A DNA stretch of 64,000 nt, from assembly GCF_037975245.1 (NCBI RefSeq), contig NC_092564.1, positions 4,950,484 to 5,014,483 of the forward strand. Reading direction: 5' to 3'. The notes beneath the pieces were generated by a model. That model did no database searches. It saw nothing but the letters and a program-made list of their open reading frames with translations, and was not told where the DNA came from. Origin of the DNA: Apostichopus japonicus. Taxonomy: Eukaryota; Echinodermata; Holothuroidea; Aspidochirotida; Stichopodidae. Below are positions 6,374 to 32,700 of this stretch, piece after piece. Numbering within the stretch: the first letter of the stretch is position 1; each line of letters opens with the position of its first letter. The translations under genes were made by a program, and so were the position numbers.

Positions 6374-8871
6374 GATACTGGATATAATCAACCTCTAAGA
6401 ACACTCTTCGATTAAGGTGCGCGAGGGTAGTTACTCTTCAATCCAGAAGTGAAATGAAATGTGCGCTAGACAACCTTACGGAAGTATAATAACTTCTCTC
6501 TAAGATCTGAACCAACGCCATCTATCTGATTTGTTTGAATTTTACTCCACGACCATGCAAATGACGTCACCAGCATGAGTAATGCTTTTTACCTCATCCT
6601 AGCTTCACTGTTTTCGGGGAAGCGCTCTAGAAATAACGGCGCGCCGGTCTCACAGACAATGTACGAACCAGAACTCTTAATGTTGCAGAAAGTAAAGTAA
6701 AATTATTCCATCTTCAGACTTCTCTCTCCGACTGAAAAATCCTAAATAGGTTATTAATTGCCTATTTAAGGTTTTTAAATATCATAAAGACATAAAAGGG
6801 TAAATTAGAACGACAATGGATTTAATGTTCAACAATTACTCATCAAAATTGTTAACGCAAGTAAAACTCTGCTAGAAGGTATCTGTTGAAAGAACAGTGA
6901 ATGGCATTGTACAACGCTCATACTATACTCCGTGCAGCTATCACCGGTTCCTTCATAAGCGCCGTAACATATCACACACATTTTGTGACGGTAATGGATT
7001 ATTCAGCAAGGCTGTACCGTGTTGATAATTGTGAATTGAATTGCTCAGGTTCACATTAGTATAGGCCCAACCCTACAACATTTACGCAAACAATCATCGA
7101 AAAACTTTTCACCAGAGCAAACCACTGCTACTGTAACTTCAGAACAGTCTGTTGTCAGACATGGAAGAGGAATTTTGTGAGTATTCACCCAAAGTTGTTG
7201 TGACTTGATTCCGCCCTGTGTTGTTTATTTGACATTAACGTTTTCTCCAACATCAACGTTGTAGGCTAGCCTAGGTAGTATAGTAAAGGTTAGGATATGG
7301 GATGAGGTATAATTTTATTTTTAGTCCAAGCCTAGCCTAACTCAGGCAGTAGTGACCAACTTTTTGCTTTCCTTACACATAATTATAGTTTCCAGATAAT
7401 CCTCCTTGCTACTGTAGGAACTTTATCATTATGCAAATGCATTTCATTGTTCCATGCTGGCTGTCTAGTTGTTATGTTGCAATACAAATTGGTATTCAGT
7501 TAACATGACTAACGTTAGGCTTAATGACTAGTGTTATTTTGTTTTTGTTTTTTGTTAGGGTCTAAGTTAAGGGATCTTTGTGATGGTTAGCCTATGTTGG
7601 AGCTAAGTCAGTCATGAAGAAAGCACTAGTAGGCCTATAGAGGTTGATATTCAGTAGGCCTAGGCCCAAGTACATGCAGTTGTAACTTTAGCTGCTATTC
7701 ATTTCGATCACTGATTCTGAATGTGGATGTGGGAATCTAACATTAAACACAGTCAGCACAGCAAAATTGTTTGTGCATTTGTGCTTGACATGCTGACTTA
7801 GAAATGAATAATGTAAAGTAGTAGTTCTACAGTAGTTATGCTAGACCCTAGCTTCACATCGATGCAATCTTCCTTGTTGCACACTGTACAACCATATAGC
7901 CAGGGTCGGGCTATCCACACAAGAAAGTCCCTTACCACTTGTAAATATTGCAGCTTCGTGTCATGAGGCTTTGAATATAGGCACTGAAGATACTGTATGT
8001 TGCTGTCTTTTTCCAGTGTCAAAGTTGATTTCTAACATCATGTAATACAGAAAATCATTTTCATAAGGATTTCATTACTATACATAAAGGATATATACAT
8101 TTAATAAGCTTACTAGTCTTTAACAGAGTAGCAAGTGAATTTGTCTCTAAATACAGTACAAATTCCAGACTACAGAAAAATTGATTGGTAGAGGAACCAG
8201 AATAAGCATAAGCTTTTCTAGTCTGGTCTCTTTGGAAAAAGAAAAGATTCAAAGAAAAATAATAAGCAAATAATAACAACAGAGAAGGAAAGAAGAACAA
8301 ACAAAAAGAGAAACCTAAAGATTGTGGAACAGACTATATAGCTGCTTTGAAATGTATTGTATGTACAGTAATGTATTTATTTTCAAACAAATTCAATGAT
8401 CTGTAGGAGTAGGAGAACTTTTGGTTATTGTAAGAAGTTGTGGGTTTTTTAAAAGAAATAATGAAAGATGTTCATTCAAAAATGTGTTTTGTTTTCTGTT
8501 GACCTAGTTGTGAGTGTGTATACTTGGGGTTTGTTTCTCAAAAAAAGTTTGCGTCCGCGGGATGCAAGCAATTTGAAGAGTTTACGTCCCTGGCCAAAAC
8601 ATTGCGTCCTGGACACAGAATCCTGCGTTAGTAACAATGCTGAAATTTGTTTACCTTCTTCGCAAAAGTTGTAATCCATCAGCCCCTTGAAGGCTTTTCC
8701 CACATTCAAGGCTGCTTCGGCGTTGTAAAAATTACTTCCTAATTATCGATTATTATTACAAGTATAATAACACAGTGCCATACAAGTGCAGTAACTTTCT
8801 AGTAAACAAGGTTTTTGGTGTGCAAATTATACTTTAAACTGTCTCCCATTGCTCACTTTGAACAATTTTAT

Positions 8872-9330: not shown

Positions 9331-12300
9331 CTTTTCACGTAAAATTTTTCTTTGGTTACCCTTTTAGCATTAGGAATGTTAAAGTTCTATGGACACCTAA
9401 GAACAACATTGTCCTAATAACTCTAATTGGCATTAGAAATCATGAATATAGCTGCAGCCTGCAACCCCCATCAAAATCCATCAAAGATTGACCACTTTAC
9501 AAGTCTTTTCTTTATTCTAGTTCATTTATGGACATTGGATCAGATGAGCTATCTAAGAATGGTTTTACAATGCTCACAAATAAACTGTTGGTATCCTGTA
9601 CTAAACACCTTGAGCATCCATGGCCTATACGGACCTTTGAAAATAAAAGTTAGAAATTCCATGTCAATTTGACTGTCATTTTCTTTGCTTATAATACTGA
9701 AGGGAAGAGTGAATTATCCTTTCTAATATTGGTCTGTAAATCAGAGACAGTTTGATTAAAACACCAATTTTGTGGTCATACAGGTATGTATAATTACTTT
9801 AAAAGCTATAGTAAATAGCTACTGACTCAGAGTTAAATGCTTTATGTGGTGATCTGATATTGGCTGACATGTACTGTATAGTTCAGTCCATGACTATATA
9901 CACGTACAGTATGTAAACAAAGTGATGCTTAGGCCTTGGCTTGTTGTGGAATGCGTTATTCCATAAATGAGTAATAAAATATTTAATAACCTTTGCATCG
10001 AATTGGAATTATGTCTTTATGGATCTATTATTAACTTGACTAACACTCATAGATCAATCAAGGAACTGATGAGTGCTTTGTTAAGTATGATTGCATTTAA
10101 ATAGTGGACAGTATACATGTGTTCAGTACATATTATTCCACAGTACAATACTCACCGAGACTGTACTGTAGACTTTTATGGTACACAACTGTGTCTTGGC
10201 CTGGTCTTTGTAAACATAAAGCAAACTTGCTCAATTAAAAATGCTACTGTCATTATTATAATATACAGTAAATGCAGTAAGTACTGTATATTGTAGAATT
10301 GTAAATGTTTTGGTACAGTATAATTTGTGCAGTATTAACGTAGTATTTGTATTCAGTCAGACGGAAATTTGAAGTGGTCACATCATCTATAATTAGCATT
10401 GTACACAGTGTATGTGACATCATGCATGCATGTATAAAGGAATGGCAAAAACTGTCTGTCATAATACAGTATGGACTGTTAAATTGTTTGTTTCCTGAGT
10501 AATCTGTAAATCCCTAGCCTCTGGCCCTCAACTGCATGGAGTGACTAAGTTGAATTCTGTTGCTGAGTTGTGACAATGGCTTTTAAGAATGTTAATTTAT
10601 GTTTGCTAGCTTTTTATTGAGTCAATTCCATCCACGAAATGTTAGACTAGTTACATCTATGGTAGGCTGCTAGTGTGACAGTGTCAATATTTTGGTGATA
10701 AAGCTTACAACATACAGTAGCCATCTGTATTCCAATACACCGGGCCCAATATTCGGCTCACTTGGGCCAGAATCTTGCTCTAGCATTTAACTCTTCAGGA
10801 AAGCAATCCACTGTGTCAGAGTTAACTCAGAAAACAAAGACTTGACTTGGAATATTCTCTCAAGAATTCTGTATACATGTACAGTAAATAAAATGGTTAC
10901 AAAAACCATGTCTAAGCAGGATTCAAAAATAGATCTACAAAATATGTGCATGCATTGATTACCGGCATGTTGCTGTACATGCACACAGTGTGCAGCATCT
11001 GCTGTCCGGTGTCTTCTACTGTATGTTTAATATTGACCACTGCACTGGAAATATTGACAGTACCAGCCACAGGAATGCAGTGGTTTGTCCTCATAGAGGT
11101 CATGGCTAGGTCTTTGTCTGTGAGCTACTGTATGTTACTGTAGTATTCAATCCGTAGATCTATACAGTGTGGCCATAATAGTGCTGTGTGTTTACAATAT
11201 TACCTACTGTATACTCATATTGTACATCCTGTACTGTAGATCCCTGTAAAATGATGTCCATAAATTGCATCGTAACATTTAAATAACCTACATATGTACA
11301 GTAGTAACTGGTTTGCAAATAGTACCCATTGAGGACTACAGCAAGCACAAATATACAGTACAGTAGGTGAGCATTAATATAACCTTGGGCATTGCACTTT
11401 CTCAAGCGGCTCTATTTATAATACATTTCACTTTCTACTATTTGCACATAGTGGAGTTGTTATGAAAACACAATGCCCCTTTTATAGTATCATTGAGTAC
11501 ATTGGCAGCTTGGTTACATCCTTCCTATTGGCAATTATATTAAATGTTCACTGATCTGAGTGACTTCAGTTGGGTGCCCATATGAACAAATTCATGGAAC
11601 ATTAATGAGATTGCAATTGTTTCTCTCGGATTCAGGATTTTCTTCTTTCACAGATGCTACAAGTTCGGCAATATAGTGTCTCATATAGTACTGCAGTATA
11701 CAACACCTTGGGACGTACTTAGTACTTACAGTAGTACTGAATATTGCTGTAAATTGTCATTGCATTTGGGTTAATTCTGTCATTCAACCAAACTGAGTTC
11801 TACAGTATACATGTGTAAATTTAAACAAATAAGCTTTATAAACATCCTTTAGTATTTAAGTAGCTTGGGGGCACTTGGATGTCACAGTGAGCAATTGGAT
11901 TTTAAGTACTTTGTAAATGTACAGTATTGACTCAGGGTCTGGAATGTTTATATAACATATTGTAGACAGAATCGCCGGCAAAGGGAAAAAGGAAAGGGAA
12001 AGAAAGGTGATTCTCCTAAGTTGAGAAGAGGAAGCCTCATACAGGTAAATCATTTTTGTGCAGTAACCTTTATAGAGCACTGGTAAAACTTTGGTCATAG
12101 ATGATAGAACGTTCTACTACTATTACTGTATGGCCTGTTACCCAACGATATTACACAGTAATGTCCTGTTTCAGCAGTCTGTATGTGGTCAATGGTTGTG
12201 ACACTATTTAATAAAATTTGCCTCAATATGAACACTTGCATAGAGAATTCTAGATACTGTACTATAGTGTACAGTTCTTTCAATTGAACATACATACTGT

Positions 12301-14829
12301 ACATGTAACATAATGTACAGTATCAGTAGAACAATTTTGTGCATGGATTACCTTCCAATTGGTTAAATTATGCTGCAACAGATGGGATCATTTTTACAAG
12401 TACGTTGCAGAAAGGAAGTCTCCCTACATATACAGTAAATGGCAAGAAAGTGAAGGTTTGGTACGTCTGAAGTACTGTACAATCTTTGATGGTTCACGGT
12501 CAATTGCCACTCAGTTACCAGAAGAACTCTCCTGAACACTTGAAGGCTGACTGGTATAGTATATGCATACAGCATATACTGTTAAACGGACATTACATGT
12601 ATGGTAGGATCTACTGTACAGTATTTGCTGTCATCGCCCAGAGTCATGTTTAATTGGATGGTTACCTGTTACAACGAAATATTACCCCAGGGTATGAATA
12701 TTCATTGGTAATGCACACTGAATGATTGCACTTGTCAGTAATTGGTGATTTGTCAAATTATGGTTCCAAGATTATCTTTCCTAATACTGATTCAGGTCGT
12801 GGGATTCTAAATTGTGCAACTTGAAGCTGTACTGTACTGTAGCACCACAGGACGCTAAAGTATATCAATTTTGATTGGTGAACATTAAGTCGGTAAACAG
12901 AGACAACGTTCTCAATTCTAATGTACAGGTCATTACTTGGACAAACTTCTTGCCGGGCTCACTTTACATCACCTTGGTGTCTGTATTATCCATGCTAATG
13001 GCTGACGTTGATTGTACGTAGTACTGTACAGTCTGTAAATATGATACTGTGGCCAATTCCCAGCATTTCCCATATAAGTTTGTATTTTTCATTCATATGT
13101 GTCTGTATGTTTGTAGTGACAGCAGCTGGCATCAAAAGTTCAATAAATTAAGTTTTTCTGGATGATTACTGTAGAAACGATTGAAACCATGGTGATCTCC
13201 AAACGACAAGAGATTAAAGCATCCTGTACTGTAGTTTCTAAACAATCAGCGTTTTCATACGTCTGTCAAACTTAGCATACAGTATGTGTGTTCCTGTTTG
13301 TCGAATGTCTCCTGATTGTGCTATCAGATTGCTGTTGCTATTTTATCCAGGCTCAAATCCTGGTACAGTTAAAGTACATTACGTTTTTACAGTACTTACA
13401 CAACAGTGCACACTATCCAACAACAACTTTAGGCATTCAATCACCAACCGTAATGATTGTTTCTCAGATTTCAGTTTCACATTCGTCCATGTGTCCACCT
13501 TTGGACATTCACCGATGCCACCATTTTATCAACTCAGTAATCAATTTGAAAGTAAGAAAATGATATTTAATGACACTAAGCTAAACAGCCGGCAGTTTTC
13601 ATTGAGTCAGCAGATTTCTGTTTAGAAATAATATTTAATATGTAATTATTTTGGTTGATATGGTTATTGCAGTCAACTTACAGTACATGTAGGCTATACT
13701 GTATGTCAATTGACAAACGTTTCTCAGAAGTTATCGGTTTAAACACCTCTCTTGGTCACTGCCCAATACTTTCATGATTTCATCGATACTCTGTGTCAGT
13801 TTTGCAGCTCTAGGTAAGTGCCACATGTATGCTGTCTCTGCAGACATTTTTTCTTACTGTGCTGTACTGTACGTCCTGAGTGAGTACTGTACAATACTAC
13901 ATGTACAGTATGCATTCAAGCAGCACTGTGAACACACAGGAAGACTGACACCACAGTACCTGTTTAATAGTTTATGCACGAAGTGGGAATGTTCAATAAA
14001 TGTCTGTTAATATTGTCTAGTCTTGGGGGGGCGGGGGGGGGGGTATTCAGGGTGTCCTTGGGATGGAAAGAGGATCTTTAGAGGAAGTTTTGTCAGATAA
14101 TATTGATGTACTGTATCAACTGCAGCAGCAGGTTGTTATCTGGCTGTTGAAAATATTGATGTACATAGTGAACGGTTATCAGCGGAAGATTAAAAGTTTT
14201 TCAATGTTTGTTCGTTTCTGTAACAAGGTATTAATATGTTCCGACAGTATGTTCGTGCTGTACAGTATGAACTGTGCTGCATTGATTTTCGATACTGGAC
14301 TTACAGTAGTAATGAGTCTGGTAGTAACATTAGGTATAAAACTAAGTACTGAATATTGATAGAGCTTTGGGTGAGTTTAAATGCCTCGATGTACAAGATT
14401 ATCATATTCTACTGTAAAGACCATTTGCTATAGTGGCCTCATTACATTACATTGCAGATATGTACGTATACAGTAGCCATAGATTCACTAACTTGCGGAC
14501 ATGCACAAGATGACCACAGTCTACTGTACATAGACAGATGTCTATAGTGGCTTTGGCGTTAACTTTTCCAGACATACAGTACAGCTATTGATGCACTAAC
14601 ATGCCAGTTTGGTCAAATATGCATGATGCCTTTCTTCATCTTAAGAAATATAAATAATTTAATATTAAAAGCTATTGTAAAAGTATTGTTCTTGTACAGT
14701 ACAGTATATTAGCTAACCTTGTCAGACAATGACTGTTTATGGATACATCATACGTAGGTCCATATGTGCTGATTGTTTTCATCATGGAATGCTTAGTAAG
14801 TGACCAGTCGTTTTGTAGCTGTTCAAACG

Positions 14830-15165
14830 TAAGTTAAAGGTCATCGGTTTCTCCCAAAATATGCAAGAGAGTAGCAACAAGTTTTTCAAGGATAAATCAA
14901 CAATAAGATTATAATAGCCTAATATAAGTGAAGCTTCCAATGAGAATTTGCCAAGATGACATCACAGACTCCCCTACTGTTATCCAACTTCCTGGAGTAG
15001 TTGAAGGTTTAATCAGTAAAATGGGTTACATTCAATCAAAAATATCTTGAGTTATTGGCATGATATTGAGATGGGGTTTTCAACTAGCAGTGTGTAATAT
15101 TTCTCTCTTCCATATAAGTTTCACATTGTTTATCAACAGAATATCCCTTTAAACTTCAGGAAGTA
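14830..15165 (-). repeat. Possible MITE-like element related to the one at 5000-5388
   Basis: Read on the minus strand it begins TTTAAAGGGATATTC and contains GTGATGTCA, as does the element near 5 kb. The other end carries GTTAAAGGTCATCGG. The resemblance is weak and based on short words only. Confidence 0.2.
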
Positions 15166-18100
15166 CTGCAAAGTTGTGGGTTAAAGTACAGTGCAATACA
15201 GTACAGTGTAGTACAGTGCAGTGCAATACAGTGGTATCCTTGGTGGTTGCAAATCCTGATCACACTACAGCACCAGTGTACTGTATGTCAGACAGGAACT
15301 GATGTTGGGTCTCTAATTGACCATAATTGACCTAATTGAACCTGCTCTGAAAATGTTCTGTCCTTTGCTGCTCATGGCACGCCCCCATGAGCATTTCTTG
15401 TACAACATTTCTGGGATCTTATTAACATCTAAACTACTGTACTTACAGCATAAACTCCTGTAAGACTGCAAAGTGTACAATACTTCAATGGGAAGTCCTA
15501 ACCCTGCATACCTTTGATCTATTTTGTTACAGTACTTAGTTTCTTTGAAGTTAAATCTTCCATTTGTTTTTGAATGGATGTTGACTACTTGTTTGGGTGA
15601 TGATATTGATCCATATATATGTGGATGCTTGTACTAGCCTGTCACTTGACAATACAAGTCTATCAGCCCATGTAAGAACAAATTGATCGGCACTTTTTGA
15701 AGGATGCAGTGCAGCGTTCTGTTGTGTTAGCAAGACTAAAATGTAACACTACTGTAATGATCATGGTTACATTTTCCTCTGACTTACTTAATTGTTGACA
15801 TAGCTGTGCAAAGCAGGTGTTGAATATTATTAACATGCATGGTTTGTGATCCATGTGGAATGCACATATTGTGATATTTTAACTTTGTGAAAGAGAAAAT
15901 TATTTACGCTGCGTGTGCTTTATTGTTTACAGGTTCTGTGTCACGGTAAGTTCATTTTACAGTACAGTACAGAATATTTTGTGTCCATGAATTTCAGCTT
16001 AGCTACAGTGTCTCTACTCTGAGTTTACAGTACAGCATACTGGATCGCATGCACACATATGTAGTGCATACAGTACATTACAGTATGGGTTTATTGAGTA
16101 TGTTCGTACAGTATCCATACAGTAGCTCTCATCAATGTCAAGGGGAGAAATCGCCATTCAAAACGATGGTCAAGTTATATAGAATGACATATAAACTGCG
16201 AACTTGAATGGCACTTTGGAGTTGGTGCCAGTACTACTGTCTATGTATGTAGGCCCTTACTGTACATTAATTGTACTTAAAAGGTATGGTTTAGTGGAAA
16301 TTTTACTTAACTGATGAAAGAGGAACAATTCCTTGGGCAGCATCCTGGATCCTGGTGAAGTTTGCTCATCGAATTCCTTCCGTACCGATTTCAAACTAGA
16401 ACAGCATTTGAAGATGACTCTTTTGATGCTCAATGTGAACTTGAAGCAATTATGTGTGATATCGGAGAAGCACACTGACGAATTTCTTGTGTCTGTCTTT
16501 GAAGTTAACATCCAATTTCCTACTTCAAAAATGTAGTAATGTACATCACATTTCAGTCATTGTCATACACTGTTAACTTCACATACAGTATCTTTTGGGT
16601 AAATTTGGAATGCTAACCAATCCAAGGTCAACACAATAATTGAAAAGTAAAGAACAGAATACAATATTTTGCTGTTAGTGTGCAAAGTTCTATGACATCA
16701 CATCTGTGTGCTTTAAGTTCACTGATGGCACAAATTGTGGCAATTTCAATTATCAAAATACTGATAATGATATGTAAGAATTGGATGCAAACTTCACCAC
16801 ATGATCTAAAGTTAGAATTTGTTCCTCTTTCATTCCGTCAAAATAAAGATTTAAAATACATAAATTTTCCTCTGAACTGCCCTTTAAAGACATCATATTA
16901 CCTACAATTCAGTAATGCAATGAAAGCTCACCCCAGACTACCTCCCTGACTGCACAAAGTACAGTATGTAGTACTAGTTACATGGTAATGTGATGGTATG
17001 GAGCTTTAGTAATAGTTGCCACATTATTTTCCTTTCACTGTACAAAACTTTACACTAGAAAGTTTCCATTAAAAAGACCCAACAAAATGGTCAGCTGAAA
17101 CATCATTGACAAAAAGATAACAACTTTTCAAGGTTTTTTGGTCTTCTCTGAGGAAGTGATAAATGGTTAATCTTACACAGTGTTTATCTTAGAACATTGT
17201 AGAAATGATGTAAGTACTGTAATAAAGGTACTTTCGGAGATTATCATCAAACTGTTTGATATCGTTGCTAACTTTCTGACCCAGCTCAAGAGGAGCCTCA
17301 AAATAAGGAAATGAAGAAGGATTTCATTTCTCTATTGAATCGGTAAATACTGTACAGAAATGAAAACAAGTAACATCCTGAATGGACATGCAGGCTGTTT
17401 CATTAACTAAAGTATGCTGTAAGTATGGCAGGGCTTATTAACAGTGAGAAAAGGTATAGCAGCAATTTCCCACTTTTAATGCTTGCTAGAGACATACCTA
17501 CAGTACAGTAGGTGAACAGCATTTGTACACAGAATCGTAAAGTTCCGTAAACGTTTTTTTTAAATTACTATCAATTTTGGTTACAACTTTACCGACAAGG
17601 CCACGTAGTGTGTACAATGTTGAAACAGAATGGAAATAACTTTGTGTGGTGGTGACAACTGAAAGCTTTCACCTGGGCTACAGTATGCACATTTGTTACT
17701 GTGTGTTATAATGTCAAGCTGCTCCTTTAGTGTGACCATTAACTGGTCTCCATTCCGTCCACACCCGAAGCAGTGCAAATGACCGTCTCAAAGTCGTCAT
17801 TGATGAAGATGAAGAAGGCTAGCTTTGTAGTTGCTGATGTTGGCTTTAAAATCATACACGTACAGTAGTTACAGTATACTGTAACCATGCTGTGAAGTTT
17901 TCAATAATTATACCTCTGGCCAAGCTCAATTTCTTCAAGTTCCTGATTGGAAGCCTTTCATTTCCTTGACAAGATGTCCATCTAATGATTTGATGGATAC
18001 AAGAAATCAAAAGGAAATGTGTCAGCAAGAGGAAATTCAAATATTTTCTAGGAAAGTTCTAGTTTTGAAAATTGTCAAAGTCAGTGTGCTTGGTATGTAG

Positions 18101-18747
18101 GACTTGGTGCTAAACCTGTTATGTTGTTAATCAACCTGAGCGCTGTAACTAGCACACCTGTGTGAGACTCCCTTCCCTTTCCTTCTATTTATTTATTTAT
18201 TTTGGCCATCCTTCCCTCATTTTCCACCAAGTCAGAGCTCCCTTATCGAAGCCTTTTCGAGCCTTTTGGATCATGATTATTGAATAGTGATAAAGCATAC
18301 TATTAGTATAGACTTAAACAATTGTAAATTAGCCATCCCGCCTCGAATGAACTTAGAACATTATATTTTTACAGAAGTGTTTACAATAATAATTGTATAA
18401 CTTATTCTTTGTCTGGAGGGAGGAGGGGAGTGGGGGGGGGGAGGGGAAGCACTGTGCTATGACTAGTGCTATTATCTTACCTGTAGACTGACACACTGAG
18501 TATGAATGAGTTTTTGTGCTGTACCCGCAAGTGAAGGTATTGAACATGTAATGAAAGTGAAATTGAATTGGATTTTTCATTGTTGGAATGTAAAAGATGT
18601 TGAAACTGTAGAATCATTTATGGTGGTGTAGTTGTTTGGAGAAATTTCACATCTGTTATTAAAATAAAGAAAAATTACAAATTGCTTTCAGATTTTCTAT
18701 ATTATACTGTAGTTGAAACCATCCTTTTTATTTTGTTTCCTTTTCAG

Positions 18748-20703
18748 AATGAAGACATTCTTGTTCATTGGCCTCGAAGATTTTTCCTACCGAACTCTTC
18801 CTCCGCAGTGAAGGAAGTCTCTGCAAGTTAGATTGTAAGATTTAAGGAATTAATATTTTTACAAAATGGAGAATCTTGAGAACGAACCACCTTCATCAAA
18901 TTTAAGGAGATTAGACTGCGATAGAACATCACCCATAGGAAAAGAGTTCCTTTTCCTGGTTTTTGGACCAGTAGAAGAATTTCCCTTGTGCTCAAACTAG
19001 ACACTCCAACATGAGCAGTAGTTTAAGTAGAAATTCCAAAGTTAGAAAAAGTTTTAGATTAGAAATTACCCTAGAGAAGAGTACTGTGGAAACTTCTGGG
19101 TCCCTGGAAACCTTGAAGTCTGACATCCCAACCTCATCCGAAAGGGAATTTACAAATTCGAAAACCTGGAGCAGTGACCCAAAGTTGGTTAAAGACGCTC
19201 CGAGTCCTGCAGTGGCTAAAAAGTCGTCATCGTCCGGTAATATTGCAAAGTCTTTGATTTCAGGCAAATGGAAAAACAGCAACAGAGGATCTGAAAAGAC
19301 TATGAACCATACTGATGATGGTGCCACCAATGGAGCTAGTAGTAGTAGTCAAAAGACAAAGACCAGTCCTGTCACGAGAATTAAAACTGTGATACGCTCA
19401 ACGAAAGAAACAATTGTGGAAAAGCTTCCAGGTCTTTCTTCTAAGAATTCTTCAAAATGGCTTCAGCGTTCACGACCAAGAAGTGTAGGTGCATCTCAGC
19501 GCTATGGCGTCCACTGCAACGGCAATATACACCAAAGGGATCCAAGTCTATCACCGCCTCGTGATAGGAGAAGCCCCACAAAGGTAGATCGGAGCCGCTC
19601 CTTCAACGCCAAAAGCCGTGTCACCATTGACAACTTCGTTGCCAAACGTTGTGAAGTCTGGGAGCGAAAGTCGAGGGACTCGAGTCCAGAGCGAACAGTA
19701 ATTTTACCATTAGATTTGCCTTCTTCAGAGTCTGACCGGAAATCACTTATAAGACAAAGGACTGCTATGCTGTTTGAGCCAAAGGCTGCTGAGAGTACAA
19801 TACCAAGCAAAAAACAGCTCCTCTTAGATTTGAACGGTAGGACACCCAAGGGAACTCCATCCCAATCTAAACCAGCCAAACCGCAGTTGAAACCAAAGCG
19901 GGTGAACTTGTTCAAACGCGGTTCGCCTGTGAAACCTACCGAAGCGCATCACACAGAACCGACGGAACCTGAACCAGAGGTCCAGAACTCTTGCCCTCCG
20001 ACCGACGAGAGAGTCGTAAACGGAAATCAGCCCGCCATGGGTAAAACGTGTAGTGTACATCAGGAGGGGAGTGTCATTGAGGACGATTATGGGATAGACG
20101 TTTTGAAAACAGGGTACGACCAGTACGCCAACTGCAACGGCGTCACACCGTCCTCACCGAATCACTCAAGTAAGGACAGGTCACCCGATAAGCGATCTGC
20201 TAAGTACGAAAAAGAAAACCAAAACGTTGTCTTGCCAAAAGCTTCCAAACACAGGACCACAAGTAATTCCTCCAAAACACAGGAGGCTGTGCAATCAAAC
20301 GGTTGTGTTCCAAATGGGGTTTTAACGGAGAGGTTGGACAAGAACTTGTCCAACTATGAACTCCCTTCGAGATATGGTGGCGAGGTCACCAAACGACAGA
20401 CGGTCGCGACCCTTAATGGGGTTAAACTCGTAGACACTGTGATCGAAGGCGGCGGGGATGTCAAAAAGAAGGAACAGACGATCCCCGTGGACCACCCCAA
20501 GATCGACGACGTCGTGTTCGAAAACTCTGAAACTGTCGACAGGAGAGAGACGGTTGTAACGTTAAATGGAGTGCAGCTAGTGGAAAAGGAAGCAGAGAAA
20601 GATGGCTATTACTTCATCGATATTGTAAACAGGACCCAAGATGAACTGGAAGTATTATCCCGCGGCGCAGACGTTGATTTGGAGTCCGAACTTCCGGAGG
20701 AAG
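18748..20703 (+). CDS. DLGAP: DLGAP exon with leader and large coding part (CDS from 19011)
   Basis: It begins after the acceptor TTTCCTTTTCAG (ending 18747) and ends at GGAAG|GTAAGC, phase 1. The coding part (564 codons plus one base) starts at ATG 19011: an in-frame TAG at 18972-18974 excludes an earlier start in this exon, and the ATG has A at -3. The leader carries two uORFs. Notable are many RS/SP-type phosphosite-like motifs at about residues 150-230 and a repeated TVxTLNGVxLV motif at residues 464 and 514. The last codons (SELPEE, then the split codon) flow into SGRLRAA of the next exon. Confidence 0.9.
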
Positions 20704-23700
20704 GTAAGCTCTAACCTAGAAGGCCTAGTGGCGAGCATGTTGTGTCGGGCCACCACTGTTGATTTTGATTTGATTTATTTTACAAAATAAAGATACAAAG
20801 ACAATGCAAGATGCAAGGTGTAGGTCTCAGATGAAAACTTGTGCACAGGAAAATTACCAGTACTGTGTTCTCATTATGTAAAGGTATACTGTAGTACACT
20901 GGTAACAATATGACCTAATATGGTATTTAGGGTAACCTTCCTTGCTGGCTGAACAGTGTAATTTATCAACCTTGACAATCATTGATCATTCATTGTACCA
21001 AGTGTCATTGGGTATCAAAGTGCTGAGTGGTCTACTTACAAACTGTACCAACTCAATTCTCATGAGTAAAGTACAGTACTGTAGAATGAGAAAGTGAAAT
21101 AAAATACATACACAGAGGCATTAAAATACTGTGGTAGGCAATAAGGACATTCAGTGACTGTAGGTTGGAATAGGTATGGGGTTGGATAGGTTAGTGTGCT
21201 AACACTATGGAGATTATTCTTAATTTCAACATTCACTAGATGTATGGTAGGCTGGCTTAGGATTTCAATCATGGCAATGTCATGTCATGTGACATTATTT
21301 AATTCAAAGACAATTAAATTAATTAAGTCATTGGGTTCACAACACTTCAACTTTAAGCATTCATGTGTCATGGTTTCTGTTACATATATTGGCAGCTGAA
21401 AAGGGGGGGGGGGGGGGAAACTGACGAAGTCTGTTTTTGCTGTGTTTTTGCTTGGTCACATTTGTTAGTTTGATACTAGAGTAACTACTGTACGTACTAA
21501 CTGTACTGTTGCCATATATACATGTCAGTATTTAAATAACGGAGTCCTGGCCGTTGAGTACAGTGTTGCTCAACAGGTGAGGTCGTGCAAGTACAGAATG
21601 CAAATTGTTGCACGGCTACATGTTACAGCACTCGTGTATAGTACATTACTATACATTCAGTATTGTACTGTAGTGTGAACACACAGTGCAAAGATCATCC
21701 GTATGGATATATAATACTGTACAGTGAAGTGTTTATAAAGATAATGTTTGATAACGATTATGAACAGACCTGAGAGTCAACACTTTATTAAATATTAAAT
21801 CAGTTCTGTCATAGAGACACACCCATTGTTGCTATGAATACACTGTTGTCCTGCTCTGTAGTATACTGTACATGGATGACTCATCATAATTCTCTCTGTA
21901 TTTACAGTATCATGAATTGACTATTTACAATTTAGTCGCTATTTGCTTATCATGTGACATTATTATCATGTGACAGTTATGAAAATGGAATTTGATGTTG
22001 ATGTTGGTAATTTTCAAAATGGAAACTAAAGAAACTGTACTGTAGAAGCAGCTCAATGGAGACATGGATGTGGATCACATTGAAGTACACAAAATCAAAG
22101 TTGATGGATCGTGCACGGCCGCTTACTTACATTTGTCAAGTTTGTAACTAAGCCTTCTCTGCGGGGTTTTGTGAAAGGGCAAACAGGTTATTTACTGGAA
22201 ATGCACTCCCCTGTCAGAACTGTCAGTAGACTGAACATGTATGCTCTTGTGGAGGGCCTAATAGACTGCCATTTGGAAAACCTGCAGAAAATCTGAGAAT
22301 GCACATATTTTACCCCCAAAAATGTCCCTTTCAAGATGTAAGCAGCCTGTAAATTTACTTTGCTTCTTGCTTACAGTACCTGTCTCCCCACAACCTTAGC
22401 ACTCTTTTTCTGCCCTACCTAGAATAAACTGATAACTCTTTAACACTGTGACTTTAGAACCCTTCCGGTCAATGCCCTTCCTTCTCTTTCTACCACCCAA
22501 AGTGCTGTGTGCCTACATCTTTCTATTTTTGTGTGGAATCTAATATTTGACTTATTTTGATCAGAACAGTGTTATACTAGAAATTTGTCTTGCTCCTCAC
22601 TACTGTGATACTGTGTCAGCACTACTGTACAAGTCTACATATATATAGTACGTGTCCAAGTCATGATACAGTATAAGTAGGTTTGTAGCAATAAAACGAC
22701 CAATGCAGATGCCCAATCTTGGCATTACGGAAACTCATGTCACGACTTGCAGAGAAATTGATATGATACTGTACATATATATTCTAGCGTGGGCAGATCA
22801 ATGGCTGTTGTGTAAACATGAATAAGCACAACACAAACTTGTGATATTCACTAAGGAACTTGAATCCAATACAAAAACATTTCATTTCCTTTGTCCAGTC
22901 AATTATACAAGTGTCTTTATATGTAAGTTATCCTTTAAGAGTAAATCAAATTGAGCATTGCGTTACAGTACTTTGTTTAGTTCATATAACAGGAAATAAA
23001 TGTTTTAGCTGTATAATTAGAACTGTGTTACATGTATACATTTTTTTATATTTAACAATGAGTGGATGAAACTAGGACAGTTTGAGATGTAACTATAAAT
23101 TGTGGGTGGTCATAGAACTTGTTGACAATCTTAGGCCCTGTATACGTTGGGGATTCGACACACCCCATCTATCAGTTCAGCATTATAGTGATTTTGAAGT
23201 TGCCCACACATTTTCTGTACATTTGTTACACCCTGCGCCTTGTATCAGACCCAGCAGTTACGATCACGAAACAGGCTCTCATTCGAGGTTACTTAACGGG
23301 AAGAAACGACCCAAAACCATAAGCCATCTGATGTGCAGCGCTGTTACTGTACTAATGCCTACTAGTTGGGCAAGTAACAAACAACAACAGAAGTTATACT
23401 GTAGGTCCTGTCTGATCCTGGTTCAACACAAGAGCTGCCTTTGCATTGAAACTTTAAGGTGAAAGCACAGGGTCTGATTCTCCCTCAATTCTAGTCTATG
23501 GTAGGATCTAGCCACCTTTACATTACGTTTACTGTACATTACATTTACAGTAAACAGGTAGCCTGGGGTTCAACAACTTGTGCTTTGCGATCAAATGTAG
23601 ACATAGACAAGGCCTTGATGATTCCATCATGTAACAAATGATATTTAAATTCCACCCACAAATAATGTGGAGATTGAGTTGTTATTGACTTACAACTTTT

Positions 23701-26700
23701 TTAACCCAAACTTTGAAGAAGGATGTTTTGGTTGTTGGTTTGGTTAATATGAGAGACAGACATAATTATGACTGATACTGGGTAGTTCAAAATGTGGTTT
23801 TTCAATCACACACATATATTACCAGCAAAGGTAGTATCAGCCACAATCTCCCCATTGATCCTTTGCCCCAATAGACTGTAATCATATCCAATCCAAGAGT
23901 GGCTTAAACTGTTTTTGAGGGAAGTAGTTTGTTTGCACCAGTAAACTGCAATTTAACCTGAGAATGGAGACCTGGTATGATACTACTGCATACAGCAGTT
24001 CAGTATTGTACTGTGATGCATTGGCCAGTGTATTTAATTGCCTTACAATACATAGTACATGCAGTACTTCAGTGTTATGGCTGGTATTAACAACCTGCTT
24101 GAGATGTTCCAATTATTGTAGGCTGACAGGAAGGTGTACTCCACTCCAAGTGGAGATAAAGGAAATATTCTTATTATAAAAATGCTTGTTGCCGGAGTGA
24201 CCCCTGGAAAACAGACAATCCATTTCCGCAGTCCATATCTAGCTCCGCACACACTTATTTGAATTGTCTTTTAATTTTTTTTTTTTATCTTTATCAAAGT
24301 CTTATGAATAGGAAAGTTTATGACAAGTTTAGTTCTATAAAGAACCCTGGGCAATGTTGTTGAGATTTGGCCAATAATATAATAGTACAGCTGTTTTAAT
24401 ATGTTTGCAGCTGGTGTTCAAGAAAATTGTTGCTCTTTTAATGATTACAAAGTAGGTCTGAAAATGGAAATGTCCCTCAGATAGTTAACCTGAAAAGGTG
24501 ATTGTGTCTAAAAGAAAAATTTTGTCAGGAAATGATAAATTCCTAGCTCAAGAGTTTTACATTTTTATCAGCATTCAGTATTGTAGTCTTTGTAGATCAC
24601 TTTCTAGGGAAGGTATTGAGCATTTAGCAATGGAATTTGTAAATACACGACTAATTGAGTTTATTACTTACAGCCCTTATGTATACATACAGTAGATGTA
24701 TGTGTAGGCCATACAAGTAACCAGTGCATTCGGTTTTGTTGCATTGTGCAATCCTGCAGTACTGTACGTCTAACAGGCCCAACATCTGATGTACAGTATT
24801 GTTATGCACAAGTTTACAGTAGACAATGCATAATCCACAGACAATTGAACTCTTTAAATAATATTTAAGTTTGTTTAATTCTAATTACAAAAAAACTGAA
24901 CTTCTCCTGAAATCCCTCCCCTGCCGCTTTCTGGGTTGTGAAATACTGGGTGTGATCCAGGGTTACAAGGTAATTGCAACGTATTGTGGCTTCAGACTGG
25001 CACCCCCAGCTACATATGTACAGTAGGGTGATCACCATCGATGAAGGGCTGGATAGCTCAGTTGGTAGAGCACTGGGCCTCTAACCCAGAGGTCAATGGT
25101 TTGAATCACATTCTACTGTAGCCATAATTTTCTTTGTACTTTTCCAAATAATATTCCATAAAGTTTATGGACTTCAGTATAAAGTAGCAGGCCATCAAAG
25201 AATATAGACTTTAACTCGAACATGTTAAATTACCAGCTGGTACCGTAGGGCAGAAATTAGTAGGAAAATTACAGTGTATAACTTTATAGTTTGCACTGTT
25301 TACCAATGAAATACCTGTAGGCCTCTTAGGGGACTCCCTCAACAATGCATTGTAAATTGTTGGTTTGTTATCAAATATATATACTGTACTTCTATATGTT
25401 GATTGTGTACTTTAAATACGCATAAAGTTCTACTCCAGGGTGAAATTGTGTAGGTGTCCTTTCTTGTGTAAAACACTGATTGTATAGTTCTACTTACAGT
25501 ACTTAGTAATTAGAGTATTCTAACTAAACCCAAGGTTTAGAAAGAGCCTAATAACTAGTACATTGCATCGTCGTAACTCAAACCCTGGCTTGTAAACATC
25601 GTACATGCACTCGTTGGAATTACTGTAGGGTGTGTAGTACTAGTACCTCCTCATTTCAAGCCCTTTACCCAGATATTTTTAGGTGAAGGTGCCATGTTCA
25701 ACGTCCACAATCCCTGTCTAGTACAGTCAACAGATTTGCACACAACCATGTTATCATTGGTTTCAAGTTGAATGCCAGTATCAGCTCAGTGTCTTACAAC
25801 AGATCTAGATTAATATGGTGAAAGTTTTACTGTAAACCTGCAGTTAAGTACATTAAAAGAGGGGTTTTCAGTGTTAAACTCTAGCGAAATAAGTATGCCA
25901 TATATATATGTTATGTACTGTATAGTACAGTAGTAGCCTACTGTTTGTAGTTTTAATTCTATCTATTGATGGGATTTCTGAATATTCATCCTTGTGGACC
26001 TTAGTAAGCTCAATTACCTTCACAGTTCACACTTGCTGTGGTACTCTACTGTTAACATTGTTTATGATGGTAAACGATTGTAGGTTGTTGGTTCATTGAA
26101 CAATAGGTACCATAGCCTCTTGGTCTAATATACTTTGTGAAAGGGATCAAGCATTCAATCTTAAGGTGAACTATACACCAAGTTGCCATACCATGTACAG
26201 TACACAAGACATAATGATTATTTGGATCACTGCATTATAATACCAATTTAAGAGTGCTGTCTATGCAGTGAGTTAGCAGAATCAATAACTACTGTAAAGA
26301 GTGTTCATAGGCATTTAATCCTCTCACTAAAGTTAATGTGTGAAATCCTTTCTTTTTTATTCATCACATTCACTATTGACAGTAGGTGAGAACCAAAGCA
26401 TTTTAACAGCACTTGATGGTGTGTTTACATGTACAGTATGTGTAGATTGTGTGCATACATGTACAGTACTTAGAGGGTATGTGTGTGTGATGCCTTGGCT
26501 TGTAAACATAACAACTAACAATGCACATGGTTGGTTTACTTCGCTCCTCTCTTACTTGCCTCCCACTCCACAATTGCACTTTCCTTTCTACCGAACTACA
26601 CATTTGGAAAACGTTTTAGCAATGTGTCCTCGCTCCCTGGGCCAAGCCCACTAATTCCTACTTCCGTATCTACCACCTGGAAGTTACTACACATAGTTTT

Positions 26701-29700
26701 CCGCAAAATTATCCGATTAACTTCATATTGCACCATATTGAGTGCATGAAATAGATTGAAATTGGTGGAGGTTTGAAATTGGAGGAGGCTTGAAATTGGT
26801 GGAGGTTTGAAATTGGAGGAGGTTTGAAATTGGTGGAGGCTTGAAATTGGTGGAGGTCAAAAGTCGTTTAAGGACAACACAGAAAGTAAAGCTGAGATGA
26901 ACTTCATAACTTGTATGTAAATCCACTTTAAATATTAAATACAAGAGCATTTCTTCTCTGTGGAGGTCAAAGGTCATTTGAGGTCAATGTCAGAAGTCCA
27001 AGTCTCCAGCTTGAACGAACTTCATAATATTTGTGTGTGGATCCACCTTATTGAGTACAAGAACCGTGTTCGCAATTTACAATAACTGTTCTTCATGAAC
27101 TCCCCTTATTACAGTACATTGAGAATATAACCAAACCGTGTGATCATGATGATGGTGTTACAACAAGCAAGTCCCTTCAAATGGGAGCAGATACTATCAG
27201 ATTTCTATATAAGTGGTTAAATGTCGGTGAAATATCTAATGTACAACTGGAAAGAATGTTCAGAAATTAATATGATCATAGCCAATTAATGTAGTACTGT
27301 TAAGAGAGACCTATCTACAATGCTATAGCAATTAAAATTGTATATAATGGCTGTGTGGCAGTTATTTCACACAGCATCACAGAATTCACAGTTCATGGAG
27401 TCATGTGCATTAACAAGTAGGGAAGTGATTGTTATTCTGCTATTTGAGGTCCTATACATACTTTATGTTTACAATACAAAGTTGGCTTCCCTTGTTGCAG
27501 TTTCCTTTGTGGTCTAGTCAATAAATGAGCTATTGTACTACATCAGTGTATGCATAAAAGGGAAGGAGACTTTAAACAAACATAACTGTATAGTGCTACA
27601 CTGTAGGGCAATTCTAGTATTTATACTGTATACCTATGTTACAGTAGTTCTTTCTACATACTGTAGCCCTGCTAAAACTTAAAATTGCATCATTGATTGT
27701 TAATGTTCCTGTTAAACAAAAAACCACAGTATGTGGCTGTACTGTAGTTAAAGTATTCAAATTGATTCTTTAACTTGTCTGGAATAAAATATTGTGTAGC
27801 GCAAGAATTTATTGAAAGTGTTGTGCTACTTTCCAAGTAACGTTTGTTGTAAATTATGCCCTGAACCTCATGAAATCGATACTGTAGTATATTTCAGGGA
27901 GGGAAAACTTGGGCACATGAGGGCATATATATACATGTGTATAGTACTGTCAATACAGTATAGTATGGGAGGTACATTTATCTGTAGTTAAGTCTGTAAG
28001 TCCCAGTTTTATTAGATCTTGCACTTACTTGAAATGTTTTGCAACTTTCCGTAGAGTAACATTTTGACATTGCTATCGTCAGACCTTCAATTGCTTGTAT
28101 CTAGACTAAAACAGCTGTTGTCATCATACTGTACTGTATATGATAGTTAAATAATAGTAGTGTTTGATACTAATGTCACTATCGATCACATAGTATTTAA
28201 TAAAGAGATTGGTCAGAGAAATGTTACTGTTTTGAGAAAAATTCTGCTGTTACTGACACCTTACTTTTCACGTTTGTCATCTATTTCAGCGAGTGGACGG
28301 TTACGAGCAGCGATTGGGAAGACCAACCTCTTAACCACCAAGAAGTTCAAGCAGTTCAGAGGACTCTGTGATGAGCATGTGAGTATGTCCGTATGAACCC
28401 TGGACCCTTGCATTTCATAGTATGTCCGTATGGACCCTGGACCCTTGCATGTCAGAGTATGTTCTTGTGGTTACAATCTTTGACAGGAGGAAGGAACATA
28501 TATGTCATCCTTTGTTCTCGTTTGTAAATTGATGCATAAATTACATAAATTTCCCGTTCAACAATTCCACACCTGGGGTATGTTATATTGGAGATGAGCT
28601 TTCTTCATTTAAGTTTAACCACTACTCTGTTGTGAAGTAGGGTTGTCCTGTTTGCAGAGAATTCTCATCAATAGATGTAGGTGGGTCTCTCCTGCTGAAT
28701 TTCTACTATAGTTTCCAGTGATCCAGGCAACCTTTCTTTCTAACTTCATGAATTCCTCTCAGATAAACACTCCGACATTGAGCATATATATGCACTTCAA
28801 CATACTGTACACTAGTTAACTCAAAAAAATTTGAATGCAGCCCGGTATATACTGTAAGTATTGTCCAACCTGTCAAGTTTCTGGGAATTCTCTCTCACAA
28901 TTAGAGTTCTTAACTGGCCTAATTTTTTAATGATTTTCTGATGGTCCAACATGACTACAGTTAATATCCTGTGGAAGTGCAACTAGTTGATTTGCTAGTA
29001 GGAGCTCTCAGACAGACCATGCATACAGCACACCAAGATTATCGGCTAACCATTTCTTCCTGTTCAGACAACAACTTCGAAAACTTCCAGGTTGCTCAAG
29101 AAACAACATCTTTTTCTTCCCCAAAATTTCCTGCCTATCAGGTCTGTTGACAAGAATCATGGAATAGAAATTATCAAGTAATAGATACTAGGGTACTGTA
29201 TCTATCTTCTAATACCTACACCATACACGCCAATCATAAAAGCTAAAGGATGTAGAAATATCAGAGAGCTGAGGATACTGTTATAGTATAGTGCTTGCCA
29301 CATATCTTAGAGTCGAGCCACGTGAGTCATACCGGCTCTACGACTGCAACGTGAGTCCAGCACATTCTGTAGCAATACGTAAACAGGTAGACCTAATTGG
29401 TTTTCCCCGGTGTGTGTTGCAACATGCGACGCTGTTGACAAAGTCTTGACGTTTCTTGTCGCTGCAACCCATTCGGAATGCCGGGCGCCGAAGAGTACGG
29501 AAACAGCATCTTACAGCGTGCTAAGAATGTCCATAATTTTTGTTGCAATGTTGACATGTGGCACAGTATCTCTTCGGCAGTCATGAATATTTAAAATCTT
29601 GAGATATAAAGCATGGTAGATACCTCATCAAAATGGTTTGGTATCTGTATGACTCCCAGAGCGGTCTTAAGTTTGTAAGGTAAAAATCCAACCTATATAC

Positions 29701-32700
29701 TGTAGTATGGGTTGTCCATTGTGAGTATTGTGCCTGAGAATTTACCAAGTACTGTAGCTTTTAGTTACTAATTACTGAAATCCACATGGTTTGCTGGACA
29801 TAGTCACATTTCATTGAAATTGTTTGGAACCTTAAACAATGAAACAAAATACTGTTCTTGTTTTCTGTAATGTGAAGACAAAGCAAAGTCTTCATGTTGT
29901 TGTACGCTAGTGATTTTTTTTTATCTTCCCCTTGCCTGAATCTTCACACAAAATAAATACATTACAAATTGTATTGCGAGGACTGAAAATCTGCAATTTA
30001 TGCAAAAGGATAATGTTTATTTCATCTCAGTTTAAAAAGTGACAAATGAACTTTGTACAAACAAAAGAGGCAAAAGTTGAAGCAAAACATGGTTGTGTTT
30101 TACAAAGAGCAGTGCTGGTACTATCATGAGCAATGAAAGTACAGTGTAAGATTATTATTAGAAATAAGACACAGGAAAAAGTAAGGGAGACATGACTATA
30201 CCATTGTGTAGGGCATGCATGTGCACATGACTCAAGTGGGAAATTGGAAGTGGACAGTAGCCACATACAGCTCTCCCTTCTGTGTACAGTACAGTACATA
30301 TTGTACACAGTTGTTAACAGCAGTACAGTTCTGCATTATTAACCATTTCATATAATCCATGTTTTCTGGAAGAATTCAATAAGACATGCAGTAGTACATG
30401 GCAATGTCATCAACAAGCAATCCATACACCATATCCATATTTACTTCGTTCCCCACTTACTGTACCTGTCTCCCCACAACCTATGCACCGCATTCTACCG
30501 TGTCTAGAGTATAAATCCAAGGTAATCCGGGCGAATTTCGCGAAAATTTTTCTAACTCCGAAAAACACAGTGAGACACTTTGTGGGTAGAAAAATGAAGG
30601 AAGGCCATTAGGGCCAGTGAGGGTGTACAGTGTTAAAAGATTACCAGGGCATTCTAGACACGGTAGAATGCGGTGCATAGGTTGTGGGGAGACAGGTAAG
30701 TGGGTCACTCGTAAATATATAAACCAGTAAGTTTTATAATATACACCGAGAGTTGATTGCTGCTTGTGGGTGTTTGTGTTGTTTTCCTTCCTGACATTGA
30801 ATACTGTACAGTACATGATATAAATAGGACACCATGAGCTTGTAAACTGTGGAACCTAAACATGTTAGAATCTGGCCATTATGACTGGCTGTGTGCATTG
30901 AACCAAGGTGTGAATCCAGGGAACTGTTAATCTTAACAGTTCCCTTGTGGAAACTTAACAATGCCCTCAGTTGTTTCATTGTTCAAATTGCATCCTTGAA
31001 TTTGTTTGTGTGTATTTTTTTTATCAAATATCGTTGACTTGTTTCAGTTTTACTGGCGGTAGAGATTGTTAAGCCAGGCAGAGCACCATTTTTTGCATTC
31101 CCATCATTAAACATGTACTTTTAATAGGGTTGTGATGTTAAGGATGACAGATGACATCAATAGTAGTGCTGTTGATTGGTCAGCATTAATACTCAAATGT
31201 CAAGATTCCAGTACTACAGCTGCCTGCATAGACTGACCAATGTTATAATTAAAACATCACAGTCCACTGATCTTAGCATTCATTTCCAGTTCAGACCTAT
31301 TGAATATAACTGCATGTAACAGATCGACACACCATTAATTAACCAGAGTCACGGACGGCATATATGTTGTACTACAGTTTGTGCCTCCCCGTGACCACCA
31401 CATACAGTGGTCATTGGAACATTCAGTTGCCTGCAACCAATTTACTGCAGAGAAGGAACTAAAGAACAAGCAAGAAGCAAGAAATTATGTAGCAGAATTT
31501 GACATTTCACTCTGTGCCGATGAATAAAATAACCAACTACCTATTCTTATGGGGCTACAGTATTGGGTGAGATGGAAGGTTTACAATGATAACCCCCCAA
31601 AAAAGAAAAAATATGTCGAGCAATGTCGGCTTTTGTGCAGCATGTGCACATGTTTGCACTCCATGAAGTACAACAGGACCTGTGTACTGCATTAAAACAA
31701 ACTTGATTGTAACAATACAGTTGGTTTGAATAATTTCCATACAACCAATGACTTCCCTTAAATCGCCTACAATAACTGTCAATCAGATTTAAAGTCTGTT
31801 TAAAACATTTGTGCACCCCTTAATAAACAAAGAAGGAAAAATTAGAAAAAAACAAAATATTGGAAGAAGACTACAAATTTCAGGCTGGTTTTGATATCAA
31901 GTAGTTTGTGTTTGAAATTAACCTCCGCATATATCTCTTTTGAATCATCTAAGTCCTTAACATTATTAATGAATTTGCAGGTGTTATCAATATGGATGTC
32001 AAAGTGGCAACATAGTTTTATCTATTCATGAACGTTTAAGTTACGGAGGCGGGAGATTGATTGACCCCCAAGGGGTGACAACTTGTTTGTTATTCTCAAA
32101 ATGAATATGATGTGAGTAGTGAAACCTGATATTCATCACAAAACACAACCCAACGTGCCTAACACTTACCATGTTATCTTTAATGAGAATTACAGAAAAA
32201 CAGCACTTCTGTAGAAGTTAGAGTATGGTTTGCAGAACGTGACAAGCCGGATACTGATCATGCAAGGACAGTGGTTGTACGTGTACAAAGTATCACTTTT
32301 GAAGGCCACTACGCAAGAGCATTATTTACTTTGAACATTACTGGGTGAAAACTTGTGTCCTTTATGGCACACATGAATCTACACTGTACAGGAGAGACAG
32401 TATTGGTCCCTACCAGTGCAGTACAGTACAGTATGCATGTGTTTATTGCTAGAGAAAGGCATACAGTCGCTGATTTTTTTCTACATTCTGTTTTATTTTG
32501 TTTATTAAATCAAAAACTAATGTTAATTATCTGCTGTGGACTTTGCTTGCATAATATACAGTACGCTATCCATTAACACTGATAAAAGTACTTCATGATA
32601 TGGTTGATTGTATTAGGGAGGTGCCTTTAGAGAGATACTAATCTCCTACAAGCTTTGCTTACCTACTATACAGTATGCCAACTTACTTTTACACATTCTA

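What the first reader, a model, noticed from the sequence alone, without database searches (positions are those of the whole stretch)
9800..32600. Dense TAC(A/T)GTA heptamers look like scars of Tc1/mariner excision
Seen: TACTGTA and TACAGTA occur again and again in the non-coding DNA of this stretch, much more than in 34-44 kb, and I found none in the coding exons of either large gene. They often run in series, TA CAG TA CAG TA (14695-14706, 15958-15972, 17499-17510, 30285-30296, 32422-32433) or TA CTG TA CTG TA (12830-12841). Known: Tc1/mariner elements insert at TA, and many with CAGT ends leave TACAGTA or TACTGTA after excision. Inference: each scar creates a new TA pair, so it can be hit again, which would explain the serial forms. 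If right, the region is a fossil record of a very large number of insertion-and-loss events, a mode of sequence growth that leaves no element behind.
Basis: partly seen in the sequence, partly recalled or inferred. Interest (0 to 1): 0.8.

Follow-up and report, generated by a model that had tools for sequence, protein, structure and literature searches.

The report
Dense scars of departed transposons
A 23-kb stretch of what is almost surely a sea cucumber genome is peppered with one 7-letter word, and comparing repeat copies shows that the word arises as an exact 5-letter gain at a bare TA, the mark expected when a certain kind of jumping gene cuts itself out.

Summary
Observation confirmed. 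TACAGTA/TACTGTA is the commonest heptamer of the window (161); 131 lie in 9.8-32.7 kb against 11-30 expected, depending on the model. The exact word is enriched; its six most enriched one-mismatch neighbours are all transitions, like decay. The genome matches Apostichopus japonicus by its numbers.

In repeats, copies with a bare TA coexist with copies holding an exact 5-bp CWGTA gain: about 14 gains, including 7 of the 8 five-base insertions (of 22 insertions of 1-9 bp) at one TA of a repeat with 3,704 candidate copies, and the only 5-bp indel in each of two sets of recent duplicates. Serial forms are as frequent as random re-hitting predicts (11 against 8.6 +/- 2.9). This is the footprint known from Sleeping Beauty-type Tc1 elements.

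Scars are in excess elsewhere too, but patchily; this island is the densest non-satellite stretch I saw. Not found: the CAG-ended element. Not obtained: a non-TA control. Open: why islands form (local hopping or a germline-accessible gene). A second scar-like class, TAGSCTA/TAGGCCTA, turned up.

The parts
9801..32700 (.). Scar island: 131 TACAGTA/TACTGTA in 22.9 kb, densest in 10-18 kb
   Evidence: flanking stretches low
22372..22378 (+). TACAGTA whose repeat copy in L019 has a bare TA at the same place (76% identical pair, direction of change not established)
11354..11365 (+). Serial scar TA-CAG-TA-CAG-TA
12612..12623 (+). Serial scar of mixed orientation, TA-CTG-TA-CAG-TA
12830..12841 (+). 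Serial scar TA-CTG-TA-CTG-TA
14695..14706 (+). Serial scar TA-CAG-TA-CAG-TA
15958..15969 (+). Serial scar TA-CAG-TA-CAG-TA
17499..17510 (+). Serial scar TA-CAG-TA-CAG-TA
21072..21083 (+). Serial scar of mixed orientation, TA-CAG-TA-CTG-TA
28127..28138 (+). Serial scar TA-CTG-TA-CTG-TA
30285..30296 (+). Serial scar TA-CAG-TA-CAG-TA
30802..30813 (+). Serial scar of mixed orientation, TA-CTG-TA-CAG-TA
32422..32433 (+). Serial scar TA-CAG-TA-CAG-TA
18975..20711 (+). Long open frame (579 codons stop to stop) inside the island, scar-free, taken as an exon; no Pfam match
33901..34158 (+). Open frame with a weak GKAP match (PF03359, E 2.3e-4, below Pfam's cut-off), taken as the probable last exon of the gene spanned by the island

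Best explanation
The heptamers are excision footprints of TA-targeting cut-and-paste transposons whose ends begin CAG, of the Sleeping Beauty type in the Tc1/mariner superfamily. The element inserts at a TA and duplicates it. On leaving, staggered cuts keep three terminal bases on the donor, and end joining writes TA-CAG-TA or TA-CTG-TA, a net gain of 5 bp. Each scar holds two TAs and can be hit again, which gives the serial forms. Shown here: exact 5-bp gains at bare TAs, near-equal orientations, a modest symmetric target preference, transition-type decay in the island, absence from the long exon. Inferred: the identity of the element, end joining as the repair route, and the cause of the islands (I lean to local hopping of an element lineage; germline-open chromatin is the alternative).
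For: Exact word enriched, neighbours not, with the six most enriched neighbours all transitions. 80 TACAGTA and 81 TACTGTA. Empty sites: window 22372 against L019, L013 repeat against L014 and L020, two units of the L025 array; 5 CTGTA and 2 CAGTA gains at one TA of a dispersed repeat, reversed-pattern control 0, in copies with different flanks that are 75-90% alike pairwise; a further gain at another TA of that repeat in L060; L075 against L077 and L078, and L079 against L080, each with the scar as its only 5-bp indel. Serial pairs at the rate of random re-hitting. Flanks lean to ATG/CAT on the two sides. Published Sleeping Beauty chemistry gives this footprint (passages: PMC4378557, PMC8151067, PMC7827188). 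Tc1-type transposase domains with open frames exist in the genome (45 DDE_3 matches).
Against: No CAG-ended element found. At the trapped TA 15 of 22 small insertions are not CWGTA: 8 TA, 1 CA, 2 TATA, 1 CAGT, 1 CGTA, 1 GCCTA, 1 seven-base duplication. The non-TA control did not complete. Among 12 five-base gap rows between non-satellite repeat pairs only 3 rows (2 events) are scars, though 6 of the others come from one tandem array; in the satellites L012/L026 other 5-bp indels dominate. The 20 best-scoring copies of the repeat show no private gain. Away from the trapped TA, 1 of 36 insertion calls in 40 copies is a scar. Decay-type neighbours are not in excess outside the island. Of the flank tests only one side at +1 is strong (p 7.5e-5); others are 0.01-0.2, uncorrected. 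Excisions in rice rarely leave the clean form (8 of 94; PMC4423477, passage).
Confidence: 0.85

Rival explanations
1. Replication slippage of a TACAG repeat unit creates and multiplies the word.
For: The genome holds many longer runs: (TACAG)3TA 751 times against 62 for the reversed pattern, often in arrays. Same-orientation pairs are 8 of 11 against 4.2 simulated. The L013-family gain can be read as a duplication of TACTG, and the two CAGTA gains at the trapped TA as duplications of the upstream CAGTA.
Against: Isolated scars dominate (98 of 131 have no other within 12 bp). CTGTA gains next to CAGTA (5 of 7 at the trapped TA), and the L075 and L079 gains, do not copy the neighbouring five bases. 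Mixed-orientation pairs occur (3 of 11). The repeat finder shows no 5-bp-period array in the island, only one 48-bp array of period 15 holding a heptamer and one of period 16.
Confidence: 0.06
2. TACWGTA is a functional motif (protein-binding site or the like) kept by selection in the introns and flanks of this gene.
For: Exact, palindrome-like word, clustered in and before one gene, absent from its long exon.
Against: Gains appear in unrelated, dispersed repeat copies and duplicated stretches; neighbours of the word rise in the manner of decay; serial forms follow random re-hitting.
Confidence: 0.05
3. Same footprint reading, but the source is a pogo/Tigger-type element or another TA-targeting family with CAG ends, not a Tc1 element.
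For: 33 DDE_1 (pogo/Tigger-type) matches with open frames up to 983 codons; Tigger-like ends beginning TACAGT are listed for Rhodnius (PMC4678618, passage); the pogo element Passer leaves 0-4 bp (PMC9976928, passage). The Tc1-like open frames I read have no CAG-ended inverted repeats.
Against: The clean three-base CAG footprint is documented, in what I read, for Sleeping Beauty.
Confidence: 0.25
4. For the island only: open chromatin of a gene active in the germ line, not local hopping, concentrates insertions and excisions.
For: The island runs from about 9.8 kb to a probable last exon of a GKAP-like gene.
Against: Two scar classes are both clustered but not co-located (correlation 0.05, inside the rotation null), where shared open chromatin predicts shared islands. 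The gene's first exon was not mapped and no expression data were available. Against local hopping in turn: the published range for Sleeping Beauty is up to 15 Mb (PMC7827188, passage), far wider than 25 kb.
Confidence: 0.4

Closest known systems
Sleeping Beauty (Tc1/mariner) excision footprints TACAGTA/TACTGTA
   Same: TA target, three terminal bases CAG or CTG left, 5-bp net gain (passages)
   Different: Known from engineered elements in cells and mice; here natural, very many, in a dense island, with no source element found
Excision footprints of rice DNA transposons (PMC4423477, passages)
   Same: Natural excision marks recognised by comparing genomes
   Different: 94 putative events, mostly with deletions or filler; here one clean word repeated
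Tigger-like MITEs of Rhodnius (PMC4678618, passage)
   Same: TA-flanked ends beginning CAGT
   Different: Those are elements still present; here only marks are seen

Membership tests
Sleeping Beauty-type Tc1/mariner excision footprint | Net gain of exactly 5 bp at a bare TA, recreating TA on both sides | tested here: met
   About 14 gains
Sleeping Beauty-type Tc1/mariner excision footprint | Middle bases CAG or CTG, both orientations | tested here: met
   80 against 81 in the window; 7 of 8 five-base gains at the trapped TA, 1 of 8 is GCC
Sleeping Beauty-type Tc1/mariner excision footprint | Symmetric flank preference of a TA-targeting transposase | tested here: inconclusive
   Lean to ATG/CAT in 98 isolated scars against 1,692 other TAs; one side strong, others weak, uncorrected
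Sleeping Beauty-type Tc1/mariner excision footprint | Source element with ends CAG... in the genome | tested here: inconclusive
   No such inverted-repeat element in held DNA or at the trapped TA; whole genome not scanned for ends
Sleeping Beauty-type Tc1/mariner excision footprint | Transposase of the DD34E type present | tested here: met
   45 DDE_3 matches, several with full open frames; spacing of catalytic residues not measured by a tool, and no link to the scars shown
Sleeping Beauty-type Tc1/mariner excision footprint | Excision observed in cells | not testable with these tools
   needs an assay
Microsatellite slippage product | Gained unit copies the adjacent unit | tested here: not met
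   CTGTA gains beside CAGTA; L075 and L079 gains; the L013 and CAGTA gains could meet it

The most novel reading that the evidence does not exclude
Scar islands are the written trail of single transposon lineages that walked in steps of a few kilobases: each hop left one 5-bp scar, so an island of 131 scars records on the order of a hundred local hops, after which the element was lost. Different elements write with different letters (CAG/CTG here; GGC/GCC/GGCC elsewhere), each in islands of its own. The genome would then be a recorder of transposition that outlives the elements, with, by rough extrapolation from 180 kb, some 300,000 CWG scars in this one.
Probability: 0.35. Interest if true: 0.88.

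Novelty: new variant of a known kind. Interest (0 to 1): 0.72.

Why it matters
Annotation counts elements that are present; this points to a way to count those that left. The scar is short, exact and family-specific, so past rates and places of cut-and-paste transposition, hop lengths and target choice could be read from sequence alone. If scars are still being made, they are a source of 5-bp indel variation in a farmed animal and a frameshift pressure that exons must purge.

Tried and rejected
MITE nest: no TA-CAGT...ACTG-TA inverted-repeat pair in the DNA then held; a looser scan gave one 12-of-14 pair at window 11921-13889, whose similarity ends after 15 bp; with so many scars in the island I take it as chance. 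Element trap: the left junction with a CAGT end at the repeat TA had 5 matches: two scars, one +CAGT copy, and two that I fetched and read as deletions or rearrangements; no element. Mariner transposase PF01359: no match, but its control rang nowhere, so no conclusion. The excess of TACGAGTA (Minos-like, recalled) comes mainly from a tandem array in L029. I suspected that the two scar classes avoid each other; not borne out (correlation 0.05). A second TA site (ATCTGACCTAN{1,9}GTTTCGAATG) and a non-TA control (GGACATCTCAN{1,9}GGTCCAGCTA) were requested and never answered.

Rows left out before counts: L001-L008 (neighbours of TACAG runs) in the genome-sample counts and alignments; L012, L020, L025, L026; also L011, with two tandem arrays of the window; pairs touching L011, L012, L025 or L026. 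Of 40 listed copies of the repeat I fetched 20 besides L013; of 22 insertions I fetched 20, leaving out the CA and the seven-base duplication.

Full report
Origin. The window is G000:C4:4950484-5014483 of a 671.58-Mb assembly in 35 contigs. Total size, contig C16 (46.04 Mb) and contig C4 (29.64 Mb, next to the published N50) match the Apostichopus japonicus assembly (671.60 Mb, 23 chromosomes of 18.21-46.02 Mb, 34 scaffolds, N50 29.65 Mb; PMC10344927, passages; contig lengths). This is a match by numbers, not by name.

The observation. TACAGTA 80 and TACTGTA 81 in the window, first of 7,546 strand-collapsed heptamers. In 9,801-32,700 there are 131, against 10.8 (Markov-3 on collapsed sequence), 16.5 (Markov-2) or 30.2 (Markov-3 on the sequence itself). 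TACCGTA/TACGGTA is at background (1 against 1.1). The 19 one-mismatch neighbours total 190 against 132; the six most enriched (TATAGTA, TACAATA, TACAGTG, CACAGTA, TGCAGTA, TACAGCA) are all transitions. Read as decay, the excess of 58 over 7 positions of 131 words is about 6% per site, a rough figure of mine. Outside the island this pattern is absent.

Extent. Four 10-kb stretches 5 to 40 kb beyond the window's ends hold 2, 3, 3 and 2 heptamers. In 2-kb bins the share of TAs with a heptamer is 9.5-13% in 10-18 kb and 3% at 32 kb, dipping to 1% in the bin of the long exon, which has 72 TAs and no heptamer. In the 18 stretches of 10 kb first sampled, satellites included, the count is 217 against 51 for the reversed word. 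In 18 stretches without the satellite-rich ones (180 kb; four of them near the window) it is 128 against 43.4; 114 of 180 one-kb bins have none and 7 have four or more. The excess of 0.47 per kb would mean roughly 300,000 scars genome-wide; it rests on 180 kb and is an order of magnitude only. As a yardstick, the same two words occur at over 300,000 places in the mouse genome (PMC4378557, passage).

Empty sites. (a) Window 22350-22505 has TTACAGTACC where L019 has TTACC; a repeat in L013 carries a gain that copies in L014 and L020 lack; two units of the L025 array carry gains. The first pair is 76% identical and unpolarised. The L013 gain is inherited: 17 of 20 best-scoring copies have it exactly and 3 with one base changed; it could be a duplication. 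(b) That repeat, about 320 bp, has 3,704 first-look candidates. A pattern accepting any insertion of 1-9 bp at one of its TAs found 22: eight of +5 (CTGTA 5, CAGTA 2, GCCTA 1), eight TA, one CA, four of +4 (TATA 2, CAGT 1, CGTA 1) and one seven-base duplication; the reversed control found 0. I fetched 20 of the 22. They have different flanks, and the eight +5 copies are 75-90% alike pairwise, so I take the gains as mostly independent. L060 has a further gain at another TA. (c) Two sets of duplicates, fetched because of transposase matches and not for scars, each show one scar as their only 5-bp indel: L075 against L077 and L078 (17-20 mismatches per pair in about 1.95 kb) and L079 against L080 (15 mismatches in 692 bp). 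Altogether about 14 gains. Against this, only 3 of 12 five-base gap rows are scars (6 of the other 9 lie in one tandem array), and satellites show many other 5-bp indels.

Mechanism. Sleeping Beauty cuts leave three-base overhangs, and end joining turns them into a CAG footprint at the old TA (PMC8151067 and PMC7827188, passages). The anatomy here matches: TA kept, CAG or CTG, equal orientations, a lean of the flanks to ATG/CAT in 98 isolated scars (statistically modest). Eleven offset-5 pairs against 8.6 +/- 2.9 simulated show that the serial forms need no special cause, though same-orientation pairs are somewhat many (8 against 4.2), and slippage may add to long runs elsewhere: (TACAG)3TA occurs 751 times against 62 for the reversed pattern.

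The element. Tc1-type domains exist (45 DDE_3 matches, several with full open frames), as do pogo/Tigger-type ones (33 DDE_1 matches). The three Tc1-like open frames I examined for ends (L073, L075, L076) show no CAG-ended inverted repeats, and similarity between copies runs to the fetched ends. No CAG-ended element turned up in held DNA or at the trapped TA. The source is not identified and may be pogo-like.

Why an island. Both scar classes are clustered (variance/mean 3.7 and 3.6) but not with each other (correlation 0.05, inside the null). Shared open chromatin would predict shared islands; local hopping of separate lineages would not. Yet Sleeping Beauty's local hopping covers up to 15 Mb, and the P element's about 100 kb (PMC7827188, passage), so 25 kb would be unusually short, and the island coincides with a probable GKAP-like gene (PF03359, E 2.3e-4, below cut-off). 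I leave this open.

Second class. TAGGCTA/TAGCCTA (52 against 16.4) and TAGGCCTA (26 against 1.9) are in excess in 209 kb outside the island, dispersed, with serial and mixed forms; one exact GCCTA gain at a bare TA was seen. It looks like the scar of another TA-targeting element.

In print. Searches with the two words and footprint or Tc1 terms, excision footprints genome-wide, transposon footprints with genome evolution, sea cucumber with Tc1 and TAGGCCTA with transposon listed no paper whose title or abstract start describes natural accumulation or islands of such scars. These are listings of one open-access library; I opened passages of seven papers and no supplements.

Noticed in passing
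window 4238-4272, 7262-7662, 42000-45993; L023 3-6 kb; L058: Second scar-like class TAGGCTA/TAGCCTA/TAGGCCTA, in clusters, with serial forms (44180-44193, 7262-7273, 44475-44487) and a mixed one with CAGTA at 56844-56855; one exact GCCTA gain at a bare TA in a repeat copy.
   Followed up: partly
C9:37375603-37464739 of G000: Tandem series of matches to a Tc1-type transposase domain with identical scores at about 5.7-kb spacing, open frames mostly of 384 codons, at the end of the contig.
   Followed up: no
L073, L075, L076: Three divergent intact Tc1-like open frames (363, 356, 339 codons) without CAG-ended inverted repeats, in low copy number; possibly carried in larger units or domesticated.
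   Followed up: partly
window 46069-60103: Exons of a flavodoxin/FAD-binding reductase on the + strand (Flavodoxin_1 and FAD_binding_1 matches), probably methionine synthase reductase (recalled).
   Followed up: partly
window 51590-51890: A 150-bp tandem duplication, two copies 98% alike, inside an open frame within that gene region.
   Followed up: no
window 40250-41402 and 47756-48701: Minisatellites of period about 32 bp (36 copies) and 20 bp (47 copies); the first coincides with a strong GC skew of 0.42.
   Followed up: no
window 58364-58437: tRNA-Lys (TTT) gene on the - strand.
   Followed up: no
L063, the insert after ACAGAAGTGT in the repeat copy: A 33-bp insert with inverted-repeat ends beside TAA, and a TAA gain at the same place in L069: perhaps another small mobile element and its mark.
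   Followed up: no
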